Positions 1 to 51,188 of a stretch of 64,000 nt of DNA are shown here, piece after piece. The notes below the pieces were generated by a model. It did no database searches. It saw only the letters and a program-made list of their open reading frames with translations, and was not told the origin of the DNA. A program made the translations under genes and the position numbers. The first letter of the stretch is position 1. Each line of letters opens with the position of its first letter. The DNA comes from Emydura subglobosa (Eukaryota > Chordata > Testudines > Chelidae), in the NCBI GenBank assembly GCA_007922225.1, contig ML679954.1, positions 21,969,003 through 22,033,002 of the forward strand. The letters run 5' to 3'.

Positions 1-47
1 GCCCGGGGCTCCCGTCCGCCTCCGGCTGCACGGCCAGGCGCCGCCGG
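1..47 (+). other. SLC25A24: Upstream fragment of SLC25A24 coding exon 1, separated by a transposon
   Basis: This GC-rich 47-base segment ends in CCGG at 44-47, the left copy of the target-site duplication. If the transposon (48-17027) and one CCGG copy are removed, the segment joins 17032 in frame. It then reads ...PPPAARPGAAG directly before SSGRYENLF of SLC25A24. Family members have an LPxAA-like stretch at about this distance before RYE, so this is probably the 5' part of coding exon 1. The start codon lies outside the window. The sequence is short and low in complexity, so the assignment depends on the junction rather than on strong similarity. Confidence 0.6.
44..47. repeat. Left target-site duplication (CCGG)
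   Basis: CCGG immediately precedes the left TIR and is repeated directly after the right TIR at 17028-17031. Removing the element and one copy restores an open exon. Confidence 0.85.
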
Positions 48-83
48 TGTGAAGTGAAAAACTGTATTTCGCGAGAATGTGTG
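48..83 (+). repeat. Left terminal inverted repeat
   Basis: This 36-base terminal repeat starts TGTGAAGTG. It differs from the reverse complement of 16992-17027 at five positions (54, 68, 71, 72 and 78). Its inner half and the bases after it (66-108) resemble the 100-bp repeat unit found at 191-586, suggesting a shared transposase-binding motif. Confidence 0.88.
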
Positions 84-190
84 TCCCCGCTCTGTTTCTC
101 CCATGTAGATGGCAGAAGGGTAAACCTGTGACCACTGCATTGTGCGCATGCTCACCGCATTCAGCATTCAGCAAGCATTCAGCAAGCAAT

Positions 191-586
191 GACACACAAA
201 ATCACGGGAAAAAGTGTGCCCCCGCTTCTCATAGCCTGTATCACTTTTTCCTCTCTTCTCTTTCTACTGGACCACTCCTTCACATCCCTGGACACACAAA
301 ATCACGGGAAAAAGTGTGCCCCCGCTTCTCATAGCCTGTATCACTTTTTCCCCTCTCCTCTTTCTACTGGACCACTTCTTCACATCCCTGGACACACAAA
401 ATCACGGGAAAAAGTGTGCCCCCGCGTCTCATAGCCTGTATCACTTTTTCCCCTCTCCTCTTTCTACTGGACCACTTCTTCACATCCCTGGACACACAAA
501 ATCACGGGAAAAAGTGTGCCCCCGCTTCTCATAGCCTGTATCACTTTTTCCTCTCTTCTCTTTCTACTGGACCACTTCTTCACATT
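191..586 (+). repeat. Subterminal tandem array, four units of exactly 100 bp
   Basis: The motif ATCACGGGAAAAAGTGTGCC begins at 201, 301, 401 and 501, giving an exact 100-bp period with only scattered substitutions. The last unit fades out near 586. Each unit also contains a pyrimidine-rich half with TATCACTTTTTCC. The TCRCGRGAA..GTGTGYCCCCGCT core is also recognisable at 69-90, next to the TIR. Arrays like this near transposon ends often bind transposase, and that role is inferred here. Short open frames across the array are a by-product of the repeat and show no protein character. Confidence 0.93.
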
Positions 587-2840
587 TCTCCGTCTCCTTC
601 CCAATTTATTTGTACACATTATTTGCCCCCATGTAAGCTCCTTTCCATTTTCTTCTCTAGGATTTCAGTTTTCCCTTTTCTTGTTTTGTATTTGCATTTT
701 TTATATGTATTTACCTTGATCCTTTATCATGCTGTATTTAATTCCTATAGGGGTGTTTCATGTTATGATGCTCTGACCCCTATTTCCAAGCACTTCATCT
801 ATATTAACTTCTTGTTCCACATCAGTGCTCAACTTACAATTAGAGCACCGATTTCACCTCCTCTAGTATGTTTCACGACTACCTGCCACAAGAAGCTTAC
901 ATGTAAGGTTTATTGAAATCTTCTCTGTGTATCACATAGAAACTCAATATGTGGGTACTTGTAAGCCAAAAGTTTTATTACATTCTTTACTTGTATACTG
1001 CCTGGTGGGTGGGAGTATATTCCTACTGTTATACTGCCATTAATGCAGCGTGGAGTTGCTATCCACAGACATTCTATGGTATATTTTGTTAATTGTACAG
1101 TTTTCGTTAATTGTGTTATATGCTTTCTTTCAAGTAGAGCCCTCCCGGCCCCCCCAACCCCCCTCCCCCCGGCAACCTTTTGTCAAATTACCATTCTTTT
1201 ATTCCCTGTTATTTGTTTATCCCATGTTGAAGTTTCAGTTTCCCCTATAGTATCAAGAATTATTTTTTACTGTTGTATTGTACACAACTGTATAGAAGCA
1301 AGAACAATGAGTTCTTTTAAAAGTATTCAGAAACAGGTACGTAAACATATGAATTTGAGTAATGAAGATTTTATTTCCTCTACTGGCTTGAACAGTAATA
1401 TCAAACTTTACTATTCTCCATTGATAAGCCAGATATGTCACTCCAACATAACTGAACATAACTCCAACATAACTCAACAATTTATTTTGAAACAACAGTT
1501 ATACAATGTATGAACTAGGCACACTTTTTGCACTTGTACTCCTTGTGCTCATCATGCAGTATGTCTTCACTTATTCCTCCAGGAATGCAGAGAACATGTG
1601 CCCACCTCTTACAGGAGTCACACTGGACCTGTCATAAGTAATAATGAGAATATGAATGAAATCACTGGCCAGATAATGAGAAATTTAATTTCTCTTGACT
1701 GGTACTACTCCATAAATAATATTTATTATATGTATAATCATTACTGAGGAGATTGCTCTCATCGTTGATGACACAGTACTGCACACGAATTAATACAAGA
1801 ATACTGAGCCTTATGTAGGGTATTGAGTGCGGTGTATGTGCAAGTCTTGTGATATTGCTCCATCATATTACTTTGTGTTTAAAAAAAAACGAACGTAACT
1901 TACATATTTGATACAATATGGAGTGTGCCTGTGTTTGTGTGTGTTTCTGAGATGTCAGTAATACTTCGGTCATGTAGACATTGAGCTGTGCCACAGACAA
2001 AGTGGAAGGGAACCCCCCCCCATGAAATCCACAACGGCTACAGCTCAGGAGCAACCCTGAACTCAGCTCTGTACACCACTCGCCACACAGTGGATGGGCA
2101 CCTGGCCTGAGATAAGCATCTCTGCACTGCTGAAGGCCTGCCCCATCGCCAGCCAACCCGCCTCCATTTCCCTCAGTTCATGAGGTAGGGTGGCTTGAGT
2201 AGATGTAGCTTGTTAATCAGCTATCAGTACATTTGTATTATTAATGTTATTATGTCATGTACTGCCGTTACTGTTTTCATCATATGTTCTTAACGGGGAT
2301 CTTATTGCTTATTGCTGCTAGTGGTGCACTTGTTCTACCTACTGTTACTGTGTGGCTTGTACTCAAAAACAGTAGCAATCACATAAAATATTTCTTGATT
2401 CTTACCATCATGCAGTCTTTCTTCTGTGTGCAAGTCATGAAGCTGCAGTATATGCAGTAGTCCTCCACGCTGTCTGAAAAATCAATAAAGGTTTATGTAA
2501 GGATGCTTATACTGTGACGTAAATGCTACATTTACACATCTTGTCACTTAAGCAACAGGTTCTGAAATATATTCGTTTGTATTGTATAAGAATATTTTTT
2601 ACTTTGCAGCTCAGAATACTTTTCTCAAACTCTCACTATACATATTGCTGGTGGATCTAACAATCAAAGTACATATACGTGTTCTGTCAGGAGGAGCAAT
2701 TCATCGCATCCACATTGTACATCTCTTCTACACATTATTCAGACACTGTCACCATGATAGGAAAAAACCTGAGATATACCCACTGAACTATTCACATAAT
2801 AACCACTTACATTCACGTTGTCTTACCATACCCTGTGTCC
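587..2840. other. Left interior of the transposon, no convincing gene
   Basis: This is AT-rich sequence between the tandem array and the 3' end of the integrase-protease gene. Minus-strand AATAAA poly(A) signals (TTTATT on the + strand) lie near 607-612, 1197-1202 and 1366, so part of it may be the gene's 3' UTR. A GC-richer island on the minus strand at about 2040-2200 could be a further exon; see findings. Plus-strand open frames, such as 1043-1513, show no recognisable domain. A C-rich tract lies at about 1141-1171. Confidence 0.5.
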
Positions 2841-2978
2841 TCAATCGGTATTCGTAAGACAGTTATTACCTGACTCCTGCAGCAAACGAATTGCCATTTT
2901 TCTTCGAAAAATATTCATGGCCTCTTCCGTTGTTTCCACAGTCCTGATGTCTTCTTCCAATAAATAACTTTCTGCAAA
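2841..2978 (-). CDS. Integrase-protease exon: Ulp1 C-terminal helix
   Basis: The acceptor is GTTATCATAG. It encodes FAESYLLEED... and then NIFRKMAIRLLQES, the C-terminal helices of Ulp1-like domains. Either translation reads through to the TGA at 2841-2843 (adding GNNCLTNTD), or a donor (TCAG|GTAATA at 2869) joins a further exon. Confidence 0.75.
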   Translation of the reverse strand, partial: FAESYLLEEDIRTVETTEEAMNIFRRKMAIRLLQESGNNCLTNTD

Positions 2979-5900
2979 CTATGATAACTTTTATTTAGAA
3001 AATACATCGTTATAACACAGGGATACAAGTTATTATTAAAACTTTGTCTTCAATACCCTTAGGATGAGTGGTCCACAGTTGTGCCCATCACTTTGTGCCT
3101 TGTGTTCCAGCACCTTTGTTTTCCAGCCTATGGTGCCTTTACTTCTGTCTCTGAACAAGAAGGCTCTGAATTGGTGGAGAGAACAATAGCATGATGTATC
3201 ACTGTATCCTGCTTTTCCTCATCCTACATATGTAGGACTTCTTTTCTTCTTGCTTTAGTAAATGCTTTCAACGGGTTCATACTCACATAGATACATTCCT
3301 TTCCACGTGATCATGTCAGTTTTATGACACCTACCACTTTTTCCCCTGTCTGCCATGTGGCAAACAAAACATTATGTATCATGCTACATACCCACCCCTT
3401 TTTAAGGAACCTACTATGACAATATTACCCAGGTAGTTACTGTTCTGCCAAGTACTGTCACACATATAGACACTGTGACCTCTGTACAGAATTAGGTTCT
3501 ATTCACCTCCAATTCTTCAGCCATTCTTCAACATATTTCGTCTCCTGACATAAGGGGTCAATTATCAACAACTCTTTCTTGGCCATCAATGCTATCTGAC
3601 AGTGTAAAGACAGAGATGTTAACAGTTATTGCCAATATCATATTTTCAAGCACTACATAATGCCTTCTCAGAAAAGTAATTCAAAAATTCAACACTGGCA
3701 GTGTATCACTGTTACGTATCTCTACATCATGTTTTGCAGTCACTCCTGTACAGCAGGATAGACCACAGTTGTACCATGTACATGCACAGCATCGTAACCC
3801 TCTCTGCACAGTAACCGCATTTTTAGATCAATACTCTGCATGTCAACACCTCCAATGAACTTTTGGTTTCCTACATTGCAATGGGACTTTGTGAACTAAT
3901 TAATTTCAACATCGTACCTCACTGCGACAAAGCAGTGTGTTTAATTTTTCACGCTGTAATTAATCTACTGCATACTATCCCAAAGTTTAGCAAACAAAAA
4001 CATCTTACCCCAATTACCCAATGGTTTGATGAGTTGAAAGGAAGCAGCACTATATCCTTCGTTATCATTTCTCTCTGTGTTCAGTGCAAAAAATAGAAGA
4101 GAAATGGCAATGACCCAAACGAGGCAATGTGGATTACACTACCACTCCAAATGTCCTTAGAGGGCTACTATTACTCAATCTTCCACATAACCTGACATTT
4201 CACAGTTTGTTGCACGGGTCTTCACTGACTGTCACTACATTTTCTTTCCCCATAGCAGTCAAAAGACACAGTTCATTCTTACCTTCATGGAAAAGCATGA
4301 TCTTGCTGTGCCATTTAGAATGGTAGTTGAAATTACAGATGAGATGGCTTGTACCTGCTGACACTGAAGAAGACTTAGGTGATGCATTGCTCATTCTAGC
4401 ACACAAACGGCATTCTTAACTGAATTAATTCCTAAACACATCCATACATCCATACACACAATCAATCGTCACTGTTAGAAATACTTCATATACAGCAGTA
4501 GATAACACTGTTCTGTGAAATGTGGGACTTATAGGCAGAGTACATGTCAAAGATCTGGTAACAGTCATTCGGTCAAGTAATGACAGTGTGGCATACAACT
4601 CAAAGTATTTCCTAGTCCGTTTCATAGCAGCAAGAATATTGCAATCGTGATACTACATTTTCAGAGTTACACTTTGAGGAAACTTGCACTTCAATTTCTC
4701 TGTTCACCGTGCTCTTAGTTCTATGATCTATTTCTATGCGCTGTCTAGGTACACCATCCTACCTTTTGACTTTCTTGCTTGACCACACAAAACAAATATG
4801 CATCGATGACCTACAAAATACAAACAACAGAAACAGTTCTTGCACCATTTATTCTTCTGCATTCAGGTATTACACCTTTTCCTCTGTTGCTGCCAATTAC
4901 CTCATCGCCCAGCCATTGTCCTGGCTTCAGGCCACAAAATGAAATGCCATAAAGGCTGATATTTCCGACTCTGGCCTCTACTCGGCTTCCGTCACGGTCA
5001 GTCTGCAGTAATCGTACTGTAAGAGACATTTAGAAACACATCAGGCATGTTCATTGCTCATTTTCTCTCCATACCAGAATACTGAGTGCGTCTATTCTTT
5101 ACGGAAACGTTGACTTTGGGTCCAAATACAGCTTACTTTAACATACTTTACAACGATTTGTTCTGGTTCTTACCTTTCTGAAACCATTCTCTGTCTTCCT
5201 CAACCTCCATACATGGGTCATCAACGTCACTGTCCTCCTCACTGTCAATTGCTTTCAATACACATTCCCCTTCTTCCATCTTGAGTACATCAATGCTTCT
5301 TTTGAAGCAGTCACCACTGATGTCACATTCATCACCGCTGTTTAGAACCAAGTTTTGTGGGGGACTGTTTTTTGGAATGTCGTCAACAGCAGTTTGTATT
5401 TTGACGTTGTCCTCTGAGATGTTCTCAGAGACTACTTGTGCAGGTCCTTTAAAGGCTTTCAAGTGGGCTATACTATACATGGTTCCTAAACGTTTCCCAG
5501 ACATGGTTTCCAGTGTCACTCTTTTACCCACTACACTGGTAAGTTTGTATGGTCCCCGATAGGTAGGTTCCAGCGACCCTCCCTGTCTTGTTTTACGTCT
5601 TGCATTCAGCAACAGAACACTCTGTCCAACCTCAAATGTAGTTTTTCCAAATTTTGACATGTGTCTTTTACTATATTGCCTTTGTTGTCTTTCTTGTGCT
5701 TTAGAAATATTTTTCAAGCACAATTCTGCATCCGCTTCTTGTTGTGCTATAAAATCTTTCCTGTACCGCTGTATGTCTTCTTCAGTGGGTTCCATGACCT
5801 CGGGAAGCTTTGAAAAATAAAGGTCATGGTGTTCTATTACTAAGACTAATAGTCACACAGTAACAAGTTTGAAATAAAAGTTACGGCCATCAAAGACACG

Positions 5901-8900
5901 TACCATATAATTTTCTTGAACTTGGTCTGCAAATCTTGCTTCCCGTCCCATCATTAGTAGCATTGGTGACATTTTGGTACTCATGCTGGGTTTTGAGCGC
6001 AGTGAAAACAGAATGGCTGGAAGATACTCATCCCAAGTATTAAGTTTATTGCCAACACACTTTGCCAGTCCTCTGTGAAGAAAAGTTTTCGTTGTATTAT
6101 TAAAATAAAGCAAGGGTTAAATCACTGTTTTTGTATTCAATGTATACATAACCGAACTGGTGCATGGACGCTACGTTACAAGAACACCGTTATTGTACAC
6201 AATAACCAAATGTGCTTTATGGGTGTGCTATCCGACACGTTTCCCAAGGAACTGTCAGGACACAGCTGCTGTGCAGTGTCGCCTTACATCATTGGGAAAC
6301 AGTAGATAGATTGTGTAAATGTTGAATGGTGCGATTCACCTTCTCGCATGACTCGTCCAACTTCCCTTTTACACTGTTCTTGCTTAAAATCCCTATACTT
6401 ACTTTTTGATGGAATTGTTCGTGATTTCAGCAAGTCCGTTTGTTTGAGGGTGATAGGGGCTGGTGAAGCTACGCTGAATGTTAAATCTCTTGCAAAGTTC
6501 TAGGTTCAACTGTAAAAGAAATATTAAACAAATCTATGTAAATATACACCCATTAAAAGGAATGCTACTTTTCCTAGTACACATAGCTGTTATCTGCTAA
6601 TGCTTAGCTGTCCTAGGCGTGCTGTCGAAAGTATATCCAGCAATAACATGCTGTGGATAAATAAATTTCTGATGTAAAAGACCATGTTTACCTCCCAGGA
6701 ACTGAATGTCTTCGACATGTGTCTCAGATATGGAGTCCAATGCAACCGATTGTTGCAACGGAGACCCTAATTACCCTCAGGCACTTCTTGAGGCCAACAC
6801 CGACTGCGGGGACAGAGGGTGCATATGGAACCCTTCTTCTGGGACGTAAGATTTATTTTCTGCTCCCCGGGAACTCTGTGCGACTGAGGCCGGCGTCTCC
6901 CACACGCCATTCGCCAACTTAGGGACCCTGTCATGCACGGCGCAAGGATTAAAGGTAGAGAAACCCAGCATGGCACGGAAAGTGAAACCAAAATGATACA
7001 TAATATTACAGTGTGAAATAATGCACTTCAGTATTCACCAGTGCACAGTACAGGACAATTAAATCAGTACTCAAAAATAATCAGACATAAGATGAAAAAA
7101 TTGAAAGTTCTTTCCAGAATATGTGGTCTGATACATAGAGAAAATTTGTGGCTAGTGCCGAACATCGGCATACTGTCAAGTACTTTGCAATGGATATGAG
7201 CTCGCACTGGAAGTAGAACTGTAAGCAAGTGGAGAACAGGGAACGTCTGTACCCACACCGTTGCCTGCCCAAGAAAAGGTGGCTGGTTACGCAACCTTTC
7301 CCTGACCAATCCACATTCCATAGACATTAACAGGGAAACAAAAGTATTGTTCATCATCAAGCATCAGAGACATAGGAGACTGTTTAAAGACACACTGCGA
7401 AGAGCTCCGGAAAGATCTCTGTACCGTATTATTAAACTCTGATCCACGATCAGTCAGAATCCGTTGAGGACATCCATATCTAAGGCACAATTTCCATATC
7501 TTCCTTGCCACCATAGAAGAAGACTTACTTCGAAGTGGAAATGCTTCTACCCATTTTGAAAAATGATCTACCACTGTCAGAATGTACTTGTATCCTCTCT
7601 TTGTCTCAGGCATTGGCCCTATTAAATCCATTCCAAGCAATTCCCATAACTGAGTAACCTGTGTGCAAAGGAACAGGCGTGAGTGACACTTGTTATGTAT
7701 CGTACAGTCCTGTTCTCAGAAGCCCATTGTCAATATGATCCTTGAACACAGTTATGTGGTTCAAAGAGCCAATCAACGTACCATACCACTGTACAAACTG
7801 TGACAACAGAAAGAGAAAGCAGGAAGGACGGATATGGGATGTGGGGAAATGGAAAAGAAGGCATGAATGGGAGAAGAAGAAAGATGATAAAGCACAGTGT
7901 AGCGGGTATCCCATGACAGCTTATTAAAAAAAAATAAAAGTATCTCCACTATCCATATTCATGGCACATGTTGCATAATGAACAAGGTGTTTCCGGACAC
8001 AAATGTTGAACAGGAATCATGAGACCGAGTGCTGTCGAACAGTGTTCTGAAAGGATATGATAATGATTATTAAGGGACTTGGACAGGAATGTATCTCCCA
8101 GAGAGCCTGTTGTCATAAGCAATCTTAGTTCCAGAATGACAATGCAAGGCCACATAACAATTGTTAGGCACAGAATGAGCACTATGAGCGTTTCACCTTA
8201 ATGCTTTTCAGGGTGGAATCAGCAGTCAGAACCTTTCCCAGTCTCTGGCAATCCGGACACTGTGCAACCTACAGTAGATGAAATAGTATAACAACAGTAA
8301 CCTCATTTCCCATGTACAGAAACCATTTGCATTTTTCCCTCTAATTGCATACATCATATTTCTGTGAAATGGTAGAACATACCCATTCTGCTATGTCACT
8401 GGTCATCCCTGGCCAATAGTATCTGGAGCCCATAGCAAGTCTAGTCTTGTTAATTCCTTGATGTCCACCCTGTGCACTGTCATGATAGTGCTTAAAAAGA
8501 TCAAACGCTTCCTTCCTGGTGTGGACAACAAGTACCTTTCTTCCTTTTGAGGAATGGAAAAGGGTTCCTCCTGGTAATAAAAAAAACATAGACCTATTAG
8601 TGCTGCAGTGAATGTAGCATCATGACAGCTAACTGTTTCTCTATACAGAAGAGGATAAGATTGGGCCAACTAATGGTCACTGGGACAGTGCATCAAGTGG
8701 GTGGATGCAGCCCAGCTCCAACAGAACAGGGCACCTACCACCCGCATCACAGCTGGGAGAAGAAACAGTGCGTGAAATGGTGGCGCACGCCTTCCACAGA
8801 AGCTGGCTGCTGACACACCCCACAAAGCTGTGAGCTGTGCACAGCTGGGCAGTGGGCTGCTACCACAACGCTTTCCAAGAACTTGATGTCCGCCACCCGC

Positions 8901-9232
8901 ATCCCCCTGAAGTCTACTTTGCAGCGCATGCCCCCTGAATGTTTCATGTGGGTACGCGAAGCAGTGATGGAGAATAGATGATGCAGTTAACACACATGTA
9001 TTTTCATCCCCTACATAGGTACTCAGGTACATGTAATTGAAATGTATTTGGACATTGACTGGACTGTCAGAGGTATGTGTAGTACACATGGGAACTTATT
9101 ACTTGCCTTCCAAGGAGAACTTTGCAGCAAGTCTACGCAGACAAAACCGTTGTCCTTTACTCATCCCTTCTGGGTATTTCTTAGTGGTCCTGTATGCGAA
9201 AACCTTCGCAATTTTTTCATCAAAGGAAGTTC
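2841..9232 (-). CDS. Ginger/GIN-type integrase fused to a Ulp1-like cysteine protease (14 exons recognised, 5' end missing)
   Basis: The gene was assembled by eye from exons with splice signals and matching phases: 9107-9232, 8383-8570, 8197-8268, 7425-7658, 6403-6509, 5904-6072, 5174-5807, 4901-5016, 4763-4810, 4283-4354, 4009-4074, 3507-3595, 3057-3150 and 2841/2870-2978. They give about 708 codons with no stop or frameshift. Domain order is: YPxx-type N-terminal motif (KYPEGMSKG); an HHCC integrase zinc finger with final CPDC; a DDE core (GMDLIGP, LTDRGSEF, HPQTNGLAE); a GPY domain (YRGPYKL); an acidic linker; and a Ulp1/SENP-like fold (WLGDE-VIDAYL, NHW, IIDPL, AQSDGHNCG). The integrase should cut and join the element's ends. 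The protease suggests a SUMO- or ubiquitin-like processing role, but its substrate is unknown. The start codon was not found upstream of 9232 and may lie beyond the Penelope insertion. Intact frames suggest recent activity or selection. Confidence 0.82.
3057..3150 (-). CDS. Integrase-protease exon: Ulp1 catalytic cysteine
   Basis: This 94-bp exon (acceptor CTTGTTCAG, donor AGG|GTATTG) encodes KVLEHKAQSDGHNCGPLILR. It has the oxyanion-hole Gln six residues before the catalytic Cys, as in Q-x-D-x-x-N-C-G of Ulp1/SENP enzymes. Confidence 0.85.
3507..3595 (-). CDS. Integrase-protease exon: Ulp1 catalytic aspartate
   Basis: This 89-bp exon (acceptor CACTGTCAG, donor GGAG|GTGAAT) encodes IALMAKKELLIIDPL, with the catalytic Asp in IIDPL, then YVEEWLKNW. 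It leaves in phase 2. Confidence 0.85.
4009..4074 (-). CDS. Integrase-protease exon: Ulp1 catalytic histidine
   Basis: This 22-codon exon (acceptor CTGAACACAG, donor GGG|GTAAGA) encodes DIVLLPFNSSNHWVIG. NHW carries the catalytic His of C48 proteases. Confidence 0.85.
4283..4354 (-). CDS. Integrase-protease exon: Ulp1 linker before the catalytic His
   Basis: This 72-bp exon (acceptor GTGTCAGCAG, donor AAG|GTAAGA) encodes VQAISSVISTTILNG and onward, matching the segment between VIDAYL and the catalytic His in transposon-encoded Ulp1 proteases by position. It is phase 0 at both ends. It is less certain than its neighbours because the sequence itself is not diagnostic. Confidence 0.68.
4763..4810 (-). 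CDS. Integrase-protease exon: VIDAYL micro-exon
   Basis: This is a 48-bp, 16-codon exon (acceptor ATTTTGTAG, donor AAG|GTAGGA) encoding VIDAYLFCVVKQESQK. Joined to the previous exon it gives WLGDEVIDAYL, a typical Ulp1-family opening. Confidence 0.82.
4901..5016 (-). CDS. Integrase-protease exon: start of Ulp1-like domain
   Basis: The acceptor is GTCTCTTACAG and the donor is GAG|GTAATT. It encodes VRLLQTDRDGSRVE... and then LKPGQWLGDE, the WLxD start signature of the Ulp1/SENP fold, which continues in the next exon as VIDAYL. Confidence 0.82.
5174..5807 (-). CDS. Integrase-protease exon: GPY domain and acidic linker
   Basis: This is the longest exon (634 bp; acceptor TTTTTCAAAG, donor AAAG|GTAAGA). 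It begins LPEVMEPTEEDIQ, runs through a basic RQQRQYSKRHM stretch, then VGQSVLLLNARRKTRQGG and TYRGPYKL, the GPY domain found after many Gypsy/Ginger integrase cores. After SIAHLKAFKG it becomes low-complexity and acidic (EEDSDVDDPCMEVEEDREW), forming a linker of roughly 80 residues before the protease. Confidence 0.88.
5904..6072 (-). CDS. Integrase-protease exon: C-terminal part of integrase core
   Basis: The acceptor is TTCTTCACAG and the donor is ATG|GTACGT. It encodes GLAKCVGNKLNTWDEYLPAI then MSPMLLMMGREARF, the WDxxLP and PFxLxFGREARL-like segments that follow the DDE core in Gypsy-like integrases. Confidence 0.88.
6403..6509 (-). CDS. Integrase-protease exon: catalytic glutamate
   Basis: The acceptor is TTCTTTTACAG and the donor is AAAAA|GTAAGT. 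It encodes LNLELCKRFNIQ, then YHPQTNGLAE with the catalytic Glu, then ITNNSIKK. It completes the D-D-E triad with family-typical spacing when joined to 7425-7658. It leaves in phase 2. Confidence 0.88.
7425..7658 (-). CDS. Integrase-protease exon: DDE core, first two aspartates
   Basis: This 78-codon exon (acceptor TTGCACACAG, donor ACG|GTACAG) encodes WELLGMDLIGPMPET..., with the first catalytic Asp, then KYILTVVDHFSKWVEAFPL and LTDRGSEFNNT with the second Asp. The pattern matches Ty3/Gypsy-type integrase cores closely. Open reading continues past the donor, but those residues do not fit the family. Confidence 0.9.
8197..8268 (-). CDS. Integrase-protease exon: zinc-finger cysteines
   Basis: This 24-codon exon (acceptor CTACTGTAG, donor AAG|GTGAAA) encodes VAQCPDCQRLGK. 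It supplies the CxxC half of the HHCC zinc finger begun in the preceding exon and is phase 0 at both ends. Confidence 0.85.
8383..8570 (-). CDS. Integrase-protease exon: zinc-finger histidines
   Basis: The acceptor is TTTATTACCAG and the donor is TGG|GTATGT. It continues LEG|GTLFHSSKGRKVLVV and then carries the two zinc-binding histidines in HYHDSAQGGHQGINKTR, followed by YYWPGMTSDIAEW, the usual pattern of the integrase HHCC domain. It enters in phase 1 and leaves in phase 0. Confidence 0.85.
9107..9232 (-). CDS. Integrase-protease exon: YPxx N-terminal motif
   Basis: The exon starts after an AG acceptor (AATACTCAG) and encodes FDEKIAKVFAYRTTKKYPEG followed by a basic KGQRFCLRRLAAKF segment. 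This is the N-terminal helix-rich motif that precedes the zinc finger in Ginger/GIN integrases. It needs one base from an earlier exon. The only donor in the right phase is AAG|GCAAGT, a GC-type donor. A GT donor four bases later would break the frame. Confidence 0.75.
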
Positions 9233-9690
9233 CTGAGTATTCATTGAAATAAAGGATTAAATTGTGAACAGGTGCATATTGTATTAAATCTATAATCTAC
9301 CAATATCATCAGCGTACTTCTGATATTATGAATGACATGTACAGTACTGATATCTAAGCAAGGTAAGGCACAGTGTACAATGCTTGGACAATGATAACAG
9401 ATACAGAAGGAACAGCAAGATTTCTGTGGCACTTCAAAGAGTAAGTATTTCAGTAATAACAGACATAAGGTTACACAGAGTAGGTAACAGGGAGGCATGT
9501 TATAGAAATCAAAGCACATTGAGAACAGTGGTGTGAAGGTGAGGGGGAAACAGGGGGGAGGAGTGGGGTTGAGTATGGCACTTGAGGCCTGATGGCGGTA
9601 TGATATGGATTGATATGATGTCCATTTCTTAGCAGTTGGGTAGGAAGAGGATGTCTGTCTGTATCTGTGGCAGTCTTCCCATGAAGTTTG
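9233..9690. other. Upstream flank of the integrase-protease exons, no gene seen
   Basis: This region lies between the first recognised integrase exon and the Penelope element. A minus-strand start exon was expected here, but none with a good donor and correct phase was found. The open frame at 9241-9519 (minus) has no domain. Confidence 0.4.
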
Positions 9691-9699
9691 TGGATTTAC

Positions 9700-11745
9700 A
9701 TTTAAAATGGCTCAAAAAGCTACACCACTTCTCCATCACCTCTGTCTTGATGAACGCAAAGGCACCCAGTGCCGCAAAGAAAACTCTGACATGAAAATCA
9801 AAGAGGCCGACAAAGGATGCACCGTTGTCACCATGAATAGATTTGATAATGAGCAGGAGGCTGCAAAAGAACTTTCAAACACCATTATCTGCAAGCCACT
9901 ACTGTCCCATGCCACTGAATATAAGCAACATAAAGTAAAACATGTACTTCATAAAGTTTTTAAAGAACGAAGAGATAAAATCTACACTGACATACCTCCT
10001 GAGGCCAGACCAGGGTAATTCTATCTGCTACCCAAGATCCAGAAACCTGGGAATCCTGGACGCCCTATCCTCTCAGGCATTGGCACTGTCAATGCAGGTC
10101 TATAGGCTATATTGACTCTCTCTGCACAGGCTCTATGCCACCAGCACTCCTAGCTATCTTCCTTATACCACTGATGTCCCGAGGAAAGTACAATCCACCA
10201 CTGATCTTCCAGAAAATACCATACTAGCCAATATGGATGTGGAAGCTCTGTACAGTAAGCCATCCCAAATAGTGTTCCAGATTATGATATTTGACACCTG
10301 CCAGGTGAACCTAGAGACTTTGTCCTGAGCCACAACAACTTCAAATTTGGAACTTATCTATACTTCCAAGTCAGTGGCACAGCTATGGGTACCCGCATAG
10401 CCCCACATGATGCCACCATTTTTATGGCTTACCTTGAACAACGCATCCTCAAAACTCCTCCCCTAACAACTCTTCTTAACCTATGCTACACTGATGACGT
10501 TGTACTCGTCTGGACACACTGGAAAGAGTAACTTGAAGATTGTCCTGTGGATTTTAGTGATTTCCATCACACTATGAACCTCAGCGTACACCAGTTCAGA
10601 CAAGAAAGCCACTTCATGAAGACAAAGAAAATAAAAACTGGACGTGTACAGTAAAACAACCCTATACCGAAACCCAGATGACAGCAATACATATCTTCAT
10701 GCCTCCGTTTTTCAACCAAAACACAGAACACGATACGTTGCGTAGAACGAAGCCTTAAGATAGAACCGGATTAGGTCTGAACCGTTAGACAGACACAAAC
10801 ACATATAGGATCTGTATGAAAGATTAGTAACAGTACAATACCCACGTGGAGAAATCAAGAAAAATCTTGACAGAGCCAGACAGGTACCCAGAAGTCAGCT
10901 ACTGCATAACAGACCCAACAAAGAAAAGAAGAGAACACCACTGGCAATCGCATACAGTCCCCACGTAAAAACTCTCAAAGACACCATGAAAGATCTGCAA
11001 CCTATCCGAGCAGATTATCCGTCTCTCCCCTGGGCTGTTTCCGGAAGACCCATCCTGGCTTACAGACATCCACCTAACCTGAAGCAATTACTCAGCATCA
11101 ACCATACAGCCTACATAAAATCCTTCCCAGGAACCTATCCCTGCAACAAACCCCATTGCCAGCTCTGCACACACATCATCTCTAATGACATCATCAGTGG
11201 TCCTAACCACATCAATCACACCCTAAGGGGCTCATTCACCTTCTCATCCACTAATGTGATATATGCCATCCTGTGCCAGCAATGTCCCTCTGCCATGTAC
11301 ATTGGCCAAACTGGACTGTTACTACGCAGAAGGATAAATGGACAGAAATCATACATGAGAAATGAAAACAACCATAAACCAGTGGGAGACCATTTCAATT
11401 CCCAAGGGCATTCTGTGTTTGACCTGAAAGTGGCTGTACTTCTTCCACAAAACTATAAAAGCAGAATTCCAAGCTAAAATGCTGAGTTAGAAATGATCTG
11501 CAAAGTTGACACATTCAAACTGGGTTTAAACAGAGCCCTTGAGTGGCTGTCTCAGTATCGTAGGAAATTCCTTTTCTCACCTCCCACTCAACAGTGGTCC
11601 TCATTCCTCAAGTACCACCCTCCCCTTTTCCCTCCTCCTGTCCCCCATTCTTCGCACTGTGCTTTCATTATTACATGATGCATCTCTGTTACCTATTTGG
11701 TATATTACTGCAGCTGAGAAAGAGAGCTGAAGTCTATAGGTGCTC
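9700..11745 (+). mobile_element. Decayed Penelope-like retroelement (RT + GIY-YIG)
   Basis: Plus-strand fragments in changing frames show Penelope hallmarks. YLLPKIQKPGNPGRPILSGI (about 10018-10080), NFKFGTYLYFQVSGTAMGTR (about 10340-10400) and CYTDDVVLVW (about 10483-10512) are reverse-transcriptase motifs. STNVIYAILCQQCPSAMYIG with QTGLLLRRR (about 11247-11335) is the GIY-YIG endonuclease. Several stops and frameshifts (for example after 10018) show that it is inactive. It lies inside the transposon, upstream of the integrase gene on the opposite strand. Confidence 0.85.
10986..11477 (+). pseudogene. GIY-YIG endonuclease remnant of the Penelope-like element
   Basis: This is the longest intact open stretch of the element. 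It contains a Cys-rich region (CNKPHCQLCTHI) and then VIYAILCQQCPSAMYIGQTG with conserved Arg residues and HFNSQGHS, as in Penelope GIY-YIG domains. It ends in a stop soon after the domain. Confidence 0.82.
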
Positions 11746-11764
11746 ATGGATTTTGATAATGTGA

Positions 11765-12110
11765 ATGTTGATTTTAGTACCTGAAAGGGGGTCCCAGGGA
11801 GGATGGAGCTAGGCTGTTCTCACTGGTGGCAGATGACAGAACAAGGAGCAACTGTCTCAAGTTTCAGTGGGGGAGATCTAGATTGGACATGAGGTAAAAG
11901 TTTCTGAATAGGAGGGTGGTGGAGCAATGCAATGGGATACCTAGAGAGGTGGTAGAATGTCCAACTGTACATGTTTCTAACCTTTGGCTTGACAAAACCC
12001 TCGCTTAGATTATGTATATGAGGTCATTCCTGCTTTGATCTGGGTGATGGAGTAGCTGAAGTCATCCGCTCCCTTCTGTCATGCGTACTGGCTTGATTGG
12101 GGTGGCATCT
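11765..12110 (+). mobile_element. CR1 LINE 3' end fragment
   Basis: The text runs from GGGGGTCCCAGGGAGGATGG through GGAGCTAGGCTGTTCTC, GTGGCAGATGACAGAACAAG and CAGTGGGGGAGATCTAG to GCTTGACAAAACCCTCGCTT. This is the characteristic sense sequence of a sauropsid CR1 3' region. It lacks the terminal ATTCTATGATTCTATGAT-like end. Confidence 0.8.
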
Positions 12111-12149
12111 AGTATATTGCGTGACATCAGCATGGCATAATCATAATAA

Positions 12150-13190
12150 ACCATGTGGGATATGCCATGTCAGGTACTGTTTGAAAGGTTATAATATGCT
12201 AAGTAAGATAATACTTATGTTCAATTATAATATGTGAAATGGAAGTTATAGATGGATTTGAGATATCTGTTTTTCAAATTGTGCTGCCTGGGCAACACCC
12301 CAGATAGGATGGCCGCAGAACAATGGCCCCTTAAAGTATTCCCAGGTGCAAGGGGCCCAGAGGGAAAAGCCAGCATGACCAATGAGTCACCAGAACCTGC
12401 TTACGTGACTCTGTACTCCATTGCAGGCAGCACACCTGAAGAGGCATCAGGATTGGCCCATGTGACTCCGGACTCCAGTTTGGGTCTTGTGACTGTTCAC
12501 AGGCCACAGGGCCGGGGAAGGGGGTTTATAAGATCAAAACACAGGATCCATTTTGTCTATGATCCTGTCCAGCTGTAGACATACACCTACCTCTGGATCT
12601 ATTCAGCTTGCAACTGAACCAAAGGACTTAGACCCATCGAGGTACTGGATGTGAACCAGAGTGAACTAAAGAAGCCTGCAAATCCACATTTGTTCCAGAA
12701 ACCTGATGTAAATGTAGTGTTACTCATTTGTATATCCGTGATTTACTTTAACCCTTTAACATTTCTCTCATGATTTATTTCTTTCTTTTTACAATAAACC
12801 TTTAGTTTAGATACTAAAGGATTAGGTGCCAGCGTGGTATTTTAGGTAAGATCCAAACTTATAGTGAACTGGTGCTGTGGCTGACCCCTTGGGGTCAGAG
12901 GGAACCTTTTTAGTAAAGAGCATAGAGTTTAAGTAACTGATCTCTTTACTGGACCTAGTGCTGATTTGGGAGCCAGGAACTGGAATGCAGTAAAGGGGGC
13001 TGTGGGCATTTGTTGACTGGCTTCTTGATATCCAGTGTTGGGAAATCAGAAGCAGTTCGTGGCTGCTTGGGAAGCTGGGCTTCAGTGTCACCCACCAGAG
13101 CTGGGAGAATCTGCTCTCCTTTTGCAGCCTGCCCTGATCTTGGCATTCTCAGGTCTGTACCCCTGGCACGGACGGGTCACACCTTCCAAC
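12150..13190 (+). repeat. LTR-like interspersed repeat, copy 1
   Basis: The segment contains a poly(A) signal region (ACAATAAACCTTTAGTTTAG, about 12791-12810), then ACTAAAGGATT and GGTAAGATCCAAACTTATAG. It ends with a GGCACGGACGGGTCACA stretch. The same blocks recur at 30480-30965 (+) and, inverted, at 33660-34280. Open frames across it are repeat-derived. The LTR nature is inferred from length and layout; no target-site duplication was identified. Confidence 0.6.
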
Positions 13191-13199
13191 TGTATGATT

Positions 13200-14280
13200 C
13201 TATGAGCATGTAGTACACTACCCCTCATTTAAACCTTACATTAGTTAGTAAACTGTGGAGAGTGCAGGTCACCACCACAACATTTATCCTGTCACATCTG
13301 TATAGTAAACCCTCTTCTTACCTGCCATATTGATGTTGAGCTGAGAGCCTGGATCCATGGTCTCAGAAAGCAGCTGGGCAAGATGGTAGTTCTTCTCAGT
13401 TTCTTGTCAAGACTGATTCCTCTTCTCTTGAAGCTTGCCTGCTTGCTTATTTCCATTGCTTCTCTTTTATATTCTTCAATCCAATGTTTTTCAAAATATT
13501 TTGCTAATTTACATGAGTAAACACAGGAATTCCAAGAAACAATATAAGAGGGAGAGAACCATGTGCTTTAATTACTGAAAAGGTGCTAACCACCTAGATT
13601 TGTTCTTTAGCTACAGTGTTCCACCCTTCAAACAAAGGGGTATTGGGGTTGTTGTGATTAAATTGAGCAACACCTGGGATGTTATCCAGCCATTAGCTTT
13701 GTTCACAAGGTATTTTGAGAGGTCTGGAGCCATGGAGGTCTAGCACGCCCTGCATTTAACACATTTCTGTTTATGCATAGATGAGTTACTCCCAGAGGAT
13801 AAGTTCATTAGGGAAAATGGTCCAGACAGAAATGCAATTAATAAAACAGTTATCTTAATGAAATAACAGACATACTTTTAGAATAGAAAGACAGCATGGG
13901 TGTGTTGCAATGAGAAACACTCACATCTTTTCAAAAGGGACTCCAGCCACCATTTCACATATTCTGCAGTATGCACTTATTAATTTGGTAGTTAAATTTT
14001 ATAATTTGGCCCATCTTAGCTGAAATTTCACAGTCTACAGTGAGATATGATCAATTATTTAAATACTTTGATATTCATGATCTACTTTAGGATTATACGG
14101 GGGAGGTGTTATGGAGGGGGGAAAACAGGGGGTGGAGGCAAGAATCCAAGTTAGCAAGGGCAGAGGAAGAGAGGGTGTGGGAGGTGGGGAAACCAAGGCA
14201 TATATGTAACATATCTTCTTTTAACATATTGAACAATCACAAGCTAGCATATCACAAGGTCATCCCTTAGATTGGGATAT
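13200..14280. other. Transposon interior, possible retroviral remnant, no clear gene
   Basis: This is AT-rich sequence with a purine-rich tract at about 14098-14190. It lies on the 3' side of the env-like frames at 14283-14849 if those are real. No intact coding region was found. Confidence 0.35.
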
Positions 14281-14282
14281 AG

Positions 14283-14849
14283 TCATATTAAGTATGATAT
14301 CGGAGGATTCTTTAATTGCTGTATAGAATCCATCCATGGCTGCGTTAACTGTAACTGTTCATGTAGCCATTGTAAAGAATTAGGGTGGTCAAAACTGAGA
14401 TTTTGTAGTGGTACAGCAAACATAGACAAACCATATTTAACTTGAACAGAAACCATAATTACATCATGTAGAAGTGTCTTATTAGATCCCAAATGGATAA
14501 TATCATCAGGAGGGGTGGAGTGGAGCACAGAGCAGGTGGTAGAGGGGATATAACCACAGGTAATCAAGTTACAGCATCTTACATCCAAACATCCCAGGCA
14601 GCTGACTGGGTTTGAACAGTGTTCTTGGCAATACCGTCCGTCCATCCCAGGTTCCTATAGCAAAGGTGAAAGTTCTGTCCATCCCTCTCCTAGGCTTATT
14701 CCTTTCTCAAAAGCATTTTGTATACCGCAGGATAGCTTGTCCTCAGCGCAGATGGAAGGAAATCTGGAACATAGTTCTTGAAAAGGGTTAGAGGTATTCC
14801 AGGTGAGAGTCACAGATTTAGCAGTGGCAATAGACACACACACAATCAA
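14283..14849 (-). pseudogene. Possible endogenous retroviral envelope-like fragment
   Basis: Two adjoining minus-strand frames (14655-14849 and 14283-14645) are separated by a stop. The first begins with a hydrophobic leader-like stretch (IVCVSIATA) and has an NTS sequon. The second is Cys-rich (CQEHC, CLGCLDVRCC) with NKT and NLS sequons. This looks like a secreted or envelope surface protein, but I do not recognise a specific family. It may instead be a captured host-type exon. It is broken and lacks a visible partner gene. Confidence 0.3.
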
Positions 14850-16990
14850 ATAACCATAGCTATGGGGAATGCTATAGCCATAGGGAAAACCCAGGTGGCT
14901 ATAGGGAAGTCAAGCAGCATGTCTGGATGCTGGGCAAATGTAGTTCGCCTGACTAACAGATACAAAAGACTGATATAGGGGTTGCTTAGGTTCATTAACA
15001 TGTTGATCGTATAGTGGATTTAGATTAACAGTTTATACTTGACAGGAAAGACAATCATAATGCACAATGGGGTGCGCCAGATGTTTTCACAGGAAAGACA
15101 AGAGTCACTTGATTATACAATGTGGTTATCAGATACTTGGCTATCACCCAAAGATGGGTGGCTACACAATACATGTTAAAATGCTAATTTGTATGGAGTA
15201 ACTTCCTATGGGGCCAGAAAGACAGGGGGCCATATACTGATACTTATCAGAACAGGAGATGTTGGTTTACAGACATCAGAAGGGCTACAGTTCTCAAAAT
15301 TAGTTTGCATTTAAATGGTGGTCCTGAGACATCCTGTGTGATTTTAGCATCTTTATCTCAGTCTCAGTTTGGGGCATCCTGTCAATGATTGAACATGAGG
15401 GCTTCCATCACAGTTCAGGCTACCCAGTTTGAGGCCAGGCCTTCTATAATCAATTTCAGACCAGGCATTCTATAATCAATTCTATGATTTCTTCTTTGAT
15501 TCCACACAGACATGGCATATCTGAGATGCATTAATATGATTTTGAAATATTTTGGTCAATTCTTATAACATTCTCTCCCCCCCTCTCCCCCCCCTTCAAC
15601 ACAGTGGAGATGGAAAAGAAAACAGGAAGGGAAATAGTGATTTTGCTAGCATGGTCACTTTCCATGCTTCTTTTCCTCACTCTTGCATAAATCAGTGGAG
15701 AGTCACTACGGTATAACAGTGCTTTGTACAAGAAGGGACAAATCTGTCATTCACTGGGAATAGTAGTGAGCATGAAGTGTCTTTCAGGGGCAGCTCCCTG
15801 CATCTCACACCAAGTTAGAAGTAAGCATGGATTAGGGTTAGGGCCACAGGAATGTAAGTAATGTCCCTGGGGGTTACTCATACATATTTATAACATCATA
15901 GAAAGCTGACACATACATATAAACATTATTATGTATTGTAGTAAACCATGACTGTACAAGAGAGACTTTGCATGTTATATGATATTTATTGTAAATCAAG
16001 AATATGGGTTCAGTAAGATTACACATGGTCATTGATACTCCACAGGCAATCACAATACTATACTTCTGGAATATTTGATAATTAAGTTCGTCTCACAGTC
16101 AAAATTATGTGAAAAAGCAGTAATAAAATAAACAGTTGCAAAAGGCAATCCCCATTGCTGGAACAATGGCAAAAGGAGTGTTGACAGCAGGACTGGAAGT
16201 CAGTCATCCAGGAACATGATCCAACGGAAGAATCTTGCGCTACAAAAGTAAGTTAAGAAAGATAGAATGAAAAGTCACAGTAAGAACAAGAGTAAGTACA
16301 ATAATAAAAAGACAGATATCCTTGCAAAAATTGATACCACTTAGACATGCATCCGCACAATGAAGATAAAGGTAAATGCTGACATGGTAACAGTATGAAG
16401 AGTATAGATAAAATATTAGATCCTCAAAGGAGCATACTTCAAATGTGTGGCACTGTTTCATGGAATCAGTCCCCCTATAGCATGTTTCTAGGTATTGGGA
16501 TGCCTGTGCCTTTAAGAGCTGAGCCTCCCTGAGACAGAGACGAGGGTAAGAGCAGAAACAAAACAGCCCCACAGCCCCCTCCCCCTGATCTATTTTTCAA
16601 ACAGGGCAGGTCATAGGTGGCCCATCCCAGGGGGGTCACTGTGACCCCCTCTGCCCCTCATTAGGGTGGGGTTTTGCCTCTACAATAGGCTAACAACACC
16701 GCCCCCCCGGGCTAACCCCGGCTGATTCCTACCCCCCTCCCTGGTTTTGGTCCTCAGACCCTCTCCTACTCCTGCCTGCATCAGCTGCACAGCACAGACC
16801 AGTAAAATTCTGCCCCCTGATTACATCCTGCCCATCCCCGCCTCCAATGTGCCCCCTTTGCCCCTTTTTAGCCACTCTGAACAGCGGGCAACACAGTCTA
16901 ACTCCGAGCAAGGGCAGGGTGAGGGCAGCGGCTTCAGAAAATGTTAGAGAGCATGCTCAGTTCTTCTGCGCATGCTCAGTACACCCCCAG
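14850..16990. other. Right interior and subterminal region of the transposon
   Basis: No domain-bearing open frame was recognised. A pyrimidine tract lies at about 15570-15598. From about 16560 to 16990 the + strand is C-rich and unlike the rest of the element. It ends with two copies of GCATGCTCAGT (16951-16961, 16971-16981), the second within a GCGCATGC palindrome (16968-16975). A long open frame enters SLC25A24 from 16847. The region could hold a promoter firing rightward; this is inference. Confidence 0.4.
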
Positions 16991-17002
16991 GCACACGTTC
17001 TC

Positions 17003-51188
<34,186 letters not shown>

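What the first reader, a model, noticed from the sequence alone, without database searches (positions are those of the whole stretch)
2841..9232. Complete integrase fused to a complete Ulp1-like protease, with fourteen intact, phase-matched exons
Every diagnostic residue of both enzymes is present: HHCC, D-D-E, GPY, and then WLxD, H, D, Q and C. They sit in exons whose phases all agree and that have no stop or frameshift, although the open-frame view shows only scattered pieces. Ulp1 or OTU proteases have been reported in some Ginger elements, as I recall, but an intact vertebrate copy this size is unusual. The gene is either recently mobile or under selection (domesticated, as GIN1 and GIN2 are).
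Basis: partly seen in the sequence, partly recalled or inferred. Interest (0 to 1): 0.95.

Follow-up and report, generated by a model that had tools for sequence, protein, structure and literature searches.

The report
Recently mobile giant Ginger1 transposon, turtle
A turtle chromosome carries a 17-kilobase jumping gene whose 17-exon enzyme joins a retrovirus-like integrase to a SUMO-protease domain and a chromatin-reading finger; near-identical copies elsewhere in the genome show that it moved recently, and this copy landed inside the first coding exon of the gene SLC25A24.

Summary
In detail: 14 minus-strand exons (9232-2841) join in one open frame with H2C2, D-D-E, GPY and the Ulp1 residues W, H, D, Q, C. 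The model was incomplete: a 5' exon (13328-13322) and two PHD exons (2473-2406, 1628-1515) complete a 17-exon, 775-aa INT-Ulp1-PHD protein.

The gene is cargo of a complete Ginger1 DNA transposon, window 48-17027: 36-bp terminal inverted repeats starting TGTGA, flanked by CCGG duplications, in coding exon 1 of SLC25A24 of a turtle. Exon 7 occurs at 19 other places in the genome, a lower bound. Six fetched copies are about 99% identical over at least 85% of the element; three of them keep the whole frame. Introns of the four closest differ by 0.2-0.5%. So it is recently mobile, not domesticated.

All nine copies examined have at least one GC- and CpG-rich flank, suggesting insertion into CpG islands, perhaps steered by the PHD finger (inference).

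Ginger1 with Ulp1 and PHD is known from Hydra; length, 16 introns, host and youth are notable.

The parts
44..47 (.). left target-site duplication CCGG
48..83 (+). left terminal inverted repeat, TGTGAAGTG..., 31 of 36 bases match the right one
191..585 (+). four 100-bp tandem repeats near the left end of the element
13322..13328 (-). exon 0, ATG GCA G (another in-frame ATG at 13358)
   Evidence: matches N-terminus of P0001; found in 6 of 8 other copies
9107..9232 (-). exon 1, with a GC splice donor
8383..8570 (-). exon 2, H2C2 zinc-binding part
8197..8268 (-). exon 3, end of H2C2
7425..7658 (-). exon 4, integrase core with both D of D-D-E
6403..6509 (-). exon 5, integrase core with E of D-D-E
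5904..6072 (-). exon 6, end of integrase core
5174..5807 (-). exon 7, GPY motif and linker
4901..5016 (-). exon 8, start of Ulp1 domain (WLGDE)
4763..4810 (-). exon 9, Ulp1
4283..4354 (-). exon 10, Ulp1
4009..4074 (-). exon 11, Ulp1 catalytic H
3507..3595 (-). exon 12, Ulp1 catalytic D
3057..3165 (-). exon 13, Ulp1 catalytic Q and C
2870..2978 (-). exon 14, end of Ulp1 domain; splices at 2870
2406..2473 (-). exon 15, first half of PHD finger
1515..1628 (-). exon 16, second half of PHD finger and stop
9644..11477 (+). broken Penelope-like element in the first intron; the stretch is also present in the other young copies
   Evidence: the name Penelope is my recognition; only a weak RVT_1 match was computed
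12088..13181 (.). old interspersed repeat in the first intron, 75-79% like a copy at 33680-35503
16992..17027 (-). right terminal inverted repeat, ...TTTCACA
17028..17031 (.). right target-site duplication CCGG
17032..17158 (+). host gene SLC25A24, 3' part of coding exon 1 (first EF hand), interrupted by the element

Best explanation
Window 48-17027 is a full-length, recently mobile Ginger1 DNA transposon in a turtle. Its gene is spliced from 17 exons into a 775-aa transposase: an H2C2- and GPY-bearing retroviral-type integrase, then a Ulp1 (C48) SUMO-protease domain, then a PHD finger. Shown: gene model, intact catalytic residues, terminal repeats, CCGG duplications, near-identical copies at different sites, insertion in SLC25A24 exon 1. 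Inferred: the integrase binds the TGTGA...TCACA ends, cuts at them and joins them to a 4-bp staggered CCGG target; the PHD finger tethers the complex to methylated histone H3 at active CpG-island promoters; the Ulp1 domain strips SUMO from silencing or repair factors so that the element escapes repression or the gap is repaired.
For: Terminal inverted repeats, TGTNR end and CCGG on both sides of the window copy and of copy C90, as Bao 2010 defines Ginger1. Integrase part matches PFV integrase, E 1.1e-25. C48 above cut-off, SENP2 at 3.6e-7. AlphaFold model of the tortoise relative P0241 matches human SENP2, Foldseek E 2.2e-13. Six other copies about 99% identical over at least 85% of the element. 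Introns of the four closest differ from the window by 0.22-0.50%. Three of the six keep the full frame. dN/dS of the window against the older copies C656 and C31: 0.53 and 0.39. Coding bases differ less than intron bases in the four closest pairs, 11 of 9312 against 70 of 19973, p 2.8e-4, pairs not independent.
Against: No transcript of this copy was seen. The SLC25A24 exon is found once in the assembly, with the insertion, so the insertion was not shown to be polymorphic. Terminal repeats are 36 bp, just under the 40-270 bp of the literature. Of 12 readable element ends in nine copies, 7 abut exact CCGG and 5 do not (both ends of C689, right of C855 and C542, left of C31). PHD scores below the Pfam cut-off (18 against 24 bits). 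The tethering and de-SUMOylation roles are untested.
Confidence: 0.9

Rival explanations
1. A domesticated host gene, like GIN1 or GIN2, kept intact by selection for a host function.
For: Open frame over 17 exons; broken old repeats inside its intron and a neutral-decay simulation in which an old copy does not stay intact; dN/dS below 1.
Against: Six other copies about 99% identical over most of the element, at least five at other sites; the old repeats and the imperfect terminal repeats are shared by young copies, so they do not date this insertion; terminal repeats and target duplications are intact. dN/dS below 1 is also expected of a transposase lineage that keeps moving.
Confidence: 0.04
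2. A recently mobile Ginger1 family that is now dead: the burst ended and no copy can still move. (A question about present activity; compatible with the best explanation otherwise.)
For: Three of the seven young copies are broken (one stop, one stop, one frameshift); no transcript or polymorphism was shown.
Against: Four of seven, window copy included, keep frame, start, stop and splice sites, and the window copy its catalytic residues; intron divergence down to 0.22%.
Confidence: 0.4
3. A Gypsy LTR retrotransposon remnant with a captured protease.
For: Integrase part is closest among solved structures to PFV and Ty3 integrases.
Against: Ends are inverted, not direct, repeats; introns throughout; no gag-pol frame was noticed in the ORF lists (not scanned by profile throughout); the tree places it with fish integrase proteins, several with Ulp1 and PHD, away from the Gypsy-type rows.
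Confidence: 0.01

Closest known systems
Ginger1 DNA transposons with Ulp1 (and PHD) of Hydra, e.g. Ginger1-5_HM and Ginger1-9_HM (Bao et al. 2010, PMC2836005)
   Same: H2C2 - D-D-E - GPY integrase followed by Ulp1, PHD in Ginger1-9_HM; TGTNR ends; CCGG target duplications; introns; a GC-AG intron is reported in Ginger1-5_HM too (position not compared).
   Different: Tabulated Ginger1 elements are 2.6-7.1 kb with 0-4 introns; this one is 17.0 kb with 16 introns, in a turtle, with other repeats lodged in an intron.
INT-Ulp1-PHD proteins of teleosts, e.g. Astyanax P0003 (793 aa, annotated GIN1-like)
   Same: Same domain order and catalytic residues, 38% identity over 99% of the query.
   Different: Separate branch; their mobility, ends and gene structures were not examined here.
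Other turtle relatives: Pelodiscus P0002, Trachemys P0007, Gopherus P0241/P0242, Lepidochelys P0243
   Same: 41-57% identical pieces of the same protein.
   Different: The protein records lack the integrase core, or lack the N-terminal half, or have a shifted or partial PHD (my reading); they look like older families. Their DNA was not seen.
GIN1 and GIN2 host genes
   Same: Derived from Ginger1; H2C2 and integrase core.
   Different: Described as host genes (GIN2 at a syntenic place) with six to eight introns; no Ulp1 or PHD mentioned in what I read. Here: mobile, multi-copy, protease and PHD kept.

Membership tests
Ginger1 DNA transposon | Gypsy-like integrase with H2C2, D-D-E and GPY/F | tested here: met
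Ginger1 DNA transposon | YPYY motif upstream of the zinc finger | tested here: inconclusive
   Exon 1 has a YPEG stretch shared with P0001 and P0002, but it was not aligned to published YPYY sequences
Ginger1 DNA transposon | Extra C-terminal Ulp1 or OTU domain | tested here: met
   Ulp1; PHD in addition, (below Pfam cut-off)
Ginger1 DNA transposon | Terminal inverted repeats of about 40-270 bp beginning TGTNR | tested here: inconclusive
   TGTGA start met; length 36 bp, 31 of 36 matching, slightly short
Ginger1 DNA transposon | 4-bp CCGG or CCGT target-site duplication | tested here: met
   Window copy and C90 on both sides; 7 of 12 readable ends over nine copies abut exact CCGG
Ginger1 DNA transposon | Multi-copy and mobile | tested here: met
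GIN1/GIN2 domesticated gene | Host gene at a fixed place without transposon ends | tested here: not met
GIN1/GIN2 domesticated gene | Groups with GIN1 or GIN2 in a tree | tested here: inconclusive
   groups with P0001 and fish proteins; no verified GIN1 or GIN2 sequence was in the tree
Gypsy LTR retrotransposon | Long direct terminal repeats | tested here: not met
   the only end-to-end similarity is inverted
Ulp1/SENP (C48) protease | H-D-Q-C catalytic residues in a C48 fold | tested here: met
   Residues, profile; fold only for the relative P0241
Ulp1/SENP (C48) protease | SUMO-cleaving activity | not testable with these tools
   needs biochemistry

The most novel reading that the evidence does not exclude
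A living vertebrate transposon whose transposase carries its own promoter-targeting and de-repression kit: the PHD finger reads methylated H3K4, steering integration into CpG-island promoters and first exons, while the Ulp1 domain removes SUMO from silencing or repair proteins. In SLC25A24 the right terminal repeat even offers an in-frame ATG ([19 protein letters not shown]...), so the element may supply the host gene with a new N-terminus.
Probability: 0.2. Interest if true: 0.85.

Novelty: new member of a known kind. Interest (0 to 1): 0.62.

Why it matters
The one survey of tetrapod Ginger1 seen here reports relics (PMC9004415, passages). A young, intact, multi-copy Ginger1 in a turtle is a living vertebrate relative of the lineage from which the GIN genes are thought to come, and a system in which to ask why integrase-type DNA transposons carry SUMO proteases and PHD fingers. 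Its 16 introns and 17 kb are far beyond the 0-4 introns and up to 7.1 kb tabulated for Ginger1, so it also bears on how a transposon spreads with a gene that must be spliced. If the CpG-island preference holds, it is a directly testable case of chromatin-guided transposition.

Tried and rejected
Domestication by age: I first read the element as old, because its terminal repeats differ at 5 of 36 bases, a broken Penelope-like element and a 75-79% repeat sit in its intron, and a simulation showed that a neutral frame would have decayed by then. The copies overturned this: the 20 outermost bases of both terminal repeats are the same in C90, and the internal repeats lie inside the stretches aligned at about 99% in the other young copies, so they are old cargo, not clocks. 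The simulation is kept only as a record.

PF02902 over the own genome found five places; our protein has no convincing match in them (best E 0.45) and they read like host SENP-type proteases (my reading). PF00665 over the own genome scored only 150 of 2467 candidates; the window exons were not among them.

Splicing the whole element out of SLC25A24 as an intron: GT and AG exist at the ends, but the most obvious pair does not keep the frame, though a weaker donor would (read by eye, no script); not pursued.

CpG-island preference: with CCGG targets alone, 7 of 7 insertions in islands would have probability 0.0003-0.03 under assumed island fractions and densities, computed before C656 and C31 were looked at and counting copies that miss the strict island ratio; suggestive only. 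The background came from this one window (the script stopped with an error after printing the CCGG counts). A genome-wide search for the terminal repeat was asked for repeatedly and never answered.

Literature searches. Seen: PMC2836005, parts 1-3 of 5 of the text; PMC12863088, outline and passages; PMC9004415, PMC3424704, PMC5753468, PMC6431247, PMC6505133, passages only. Other papers were seen as listings. PMC6505133 tabulates some Ginger1 bases in grayling, a fish. That no intact tetrapod Ginger1 is in print rests on these searches alone. The H3K4 specificity of the PHD relatives and the mutation rate behind any age in years are recalled.

Full report
What was checked. The minus strand of the window was translated and the exons rebuilt from splice sites and frame. 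Pfam finds Integrase_H2C2 (4e-19), rve (5e-15) and Peptidase_C48 (8e-10), each above its cut-off.

Relatives of the protein end in a PHD finger. Two further exons encode it here, 2473-2406 and 1628-1515; exon 14 therefore splices at 2870 and the stop at 2841 is not used. Exon 1 lacks a start codon; a tiny first exon, ATG GCA G, lies at 13328-13322 with a GTAAGA donor and gives the N-terminus MAG seen in P0001. An in-frame ATG ten codons upstream, at 13358, is an alternative start. The exon 6/7 junction was moved to 5904/5807 because relatives lack the extra residues. The finished model has 17 exons, 2328 nt and 775 aa; fifteen introns are GT-AG and one, after exon 1, is GC-AG.

The protein. 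An alignment with 15 relatives (several partial) shows both D and the E of the integrase triad, the H2C2 ligands, GPY, the Ulp1 W, H, D, Q and C, and the PHD cysteines and histidine in our protein. Sequence search of solved structures gives PFV integrase at 1.1e-25, SENP2 at 3.6e-7 and, weakly, PHD fingers: a HORMA-domain protein at 0.0025, then BYE1, PHF20, SET domain-containing protein 3 and PHF2 at 0.0055-0.0084; I recall the last four as readers of methylated H3K4. PHD is under the Pfam cut-off (18 against 24 bits). An AlphaFold model of the 491-aa tortoise relative P0241 (mean pLDDT 68; 57% identical over the searched region) matches human SENP2 at Foldseek E 2.2e-13; the fold of our own protein was not predicted. 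In a tree of 22 integrase regions ours pairs with P0001 (100/100) inside a group with fish proteins, several of which carry Ulp1 and PHD (93/96, below the tool's mark for firm support), away from the Gypsy-type rows.

The element. The longest inverted repeat in the first 20 kb joins 40-83 with 16992-17035. Read at the bases, a 16,980-bp element runs from TGTGAAGTG at 48 to TTTCACA at 17027, with CCGG on both sides. TGTNR ends and CCGG duplications are the published Ginger1 signature, and Ginger1 proteins carry Ulp1 or OTU, one also PHD (PMC2836005).

The site. Right of the element follows the first EF hand of SLC25A24; nine further coding stretches of that gene lie downstream on the plus strand, the last near 51191. 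A protein joined from these is 94% identical to a turtle cluster (named Eretmochelys imbricata) and at most 90% to the other listed records that cover it fully, so the host is taken to be a turtle; the species is not known. The left flank is only 47 bp, target duplication included, and then Ns. Across the empty site the frame would read [11 protein letters not shown]. The exon is found once in the assembly, with the insertion; the only other hit is a 45-base match at 89%. The right terminal repeat has an in-frame ATG at 17003 reading into the EF hand (by eye).

Copies. Searching the own genome with the full protein gave 73 matches; 58 of 3824 first-look candidates were scored, so counts are lower bounds. 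Exon 7 occurs at 20 places including the window, at 53-99% identity; most of the other long matches are at 30-33%, cover the integrase and look Gypsy-type. I fetched 8 of the 19 other exon-7 places. Six (C90, C50, C689, C855, C447, C542) align at 98.5-99.6% over their long stretches (97.2% over 1.9 kb at one end of C542) and cover at least 85% of the element, some cut by contig ends; two (C656, C31) are 92-95% and rearranged. Flanks compared pairwise are unlike each other: six right flanks (window, C90, C689, C855, C447, C542) and six left flanks (window, C90, C50, C689, C656, C31). Because C50 is read on the left only and C855, C447 and C542 on the right only, C50 could share a site with one of them.

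State of the copies. The 2328-nt frame is unbroken in the window, C50, C689 and C447; C90 and C542 have one stop, C855 a frameshift, C656 lacks exons 0 and 4, C31 is broken in several exons. Introns differ from the window by 0.22% (C689), 0.32% (C50), 0.36% (C447), 0.50% (C90), 1.06% (C855), 1.32% (C542) and about 5% (C656, C31). For the window against C656 and C31, dN/dS is 0.53 and 0.39; against C855 and C542, 0.45 and 0.39. In the four closest pairs 11 of 9312 coding bases differ against 70 of 19,973 intron bases (p 2.8e-4; the pairs share the window copy and are not independent). For exon 7 alone, 19 loci including the window (one of the 20 was not taken along) grade from 100% to 74% identity, with dN/dS of 0.38 to 1.02 where defined: a long-lived lineage with a young burst, and weak constraint on this linker exon. 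At a recalled rate near 1e-9 per site and year the closest copies parted about one to two and a half million years ago.

Where it lands. All nine copies examined (the window and the eight fetched) have at least one flank with GC of 0.63 or more and CpG observed/expected of 0.46 or more (250 bp, but 300 bp right of the window and only 47 bp for C447). Six of nine meet GC 0.6 and ratio 0.6 on at least one flank; C542, C855 and C656 miss the ratio. C656's right flank, where the terminal repeat is lost, is not island-like (0.58, 0.14), and over 500 bp the window's right flank falls to 0.57 and 0.54. Of 185 chunks of the remaining window none meets both (mean GC 0.40, ratio 0.16). CCGG occurs 0.32 times per kb in that background, so a CCGG preference by itself explains much of the bias.

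How it most likely works. Shown: structure, ends, duplications, youth, site. From general knowledge of integrases: the protein binds the ends, cuts at the terminal CA and joins them to staggered CCGG. Inferred and untested: PHD tethering to methylated H3K4, and Ulp1 acting on SUMO-marked silencing or repair factors, as Bao et al. suggested in general terms for Ulp1 and OTU. Domestication was considered first and dropped once the copies were seen.

Known or new. Ginger1 with Ulp1, in one case with PHD, is known from Hydra; tabulated Ginger1 elements are 2.6-7.1 kb with 0-4 introns. A 2022 study reports Ginger1 relics in alligator, turtle, coelacanth and frog (passages). Of 18 papers in the library that hold the word Ginger1, some of them about the plant, I opened six in part; none of what I saw describes an intact or young tetrapod element. 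This is filed as a new member of a known kind, unusual in length, intron number, host and youth.

Noticed in passing
window 17032-51191, plus strand: SLC25A24 (SCaMC-1), ten coding stretches, no stop within the exons as read by eye; its first coding exon is interrupted by the element and is found once in the assembly.
   Followed up: partly
window 17003-17044: The right terminal repeat carries an in-frame ATG giving [14 protein letters not shown]..., a possible new N-terminus for SLC25A24.
   Followed up: no
window 191-585: Four 100-bp tandem repeats, 97% alike, just inside the left end; similar arrays lie at the left end of other copies. They may be transposase-binding sites.
   Followed up: no
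window 9644-11477: Broken Penelope-like retroelement (weak RVT_1; name by my recognition) lodged in the first intron and carried along by the transposon.
   Followed up: partly
window 12088-13181 and 33680-35503: Two copies of an unnamed interspersed repeat, 75-79% identical, opposite orientation, one inside the transposon, one in an SLC25A24 intron.
   Followed up: no
window 21939-22466, minus strand: Fragment of a LINE-type reverse transcriptase (weak RVT_1), CR1-like by my recognition.
   Followed up: no
P0241, Gopherus evgoodei, 491 aa, cluster of 18 sequences: A tortoise record holds only linker, Ulp1 and PHD, with catalytic residues intact, annotated sentrin-specific protease 1-like; possibly a partly retained or domesticated Ginger1 protease, or a truncated gene model.
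   Followed up: partly
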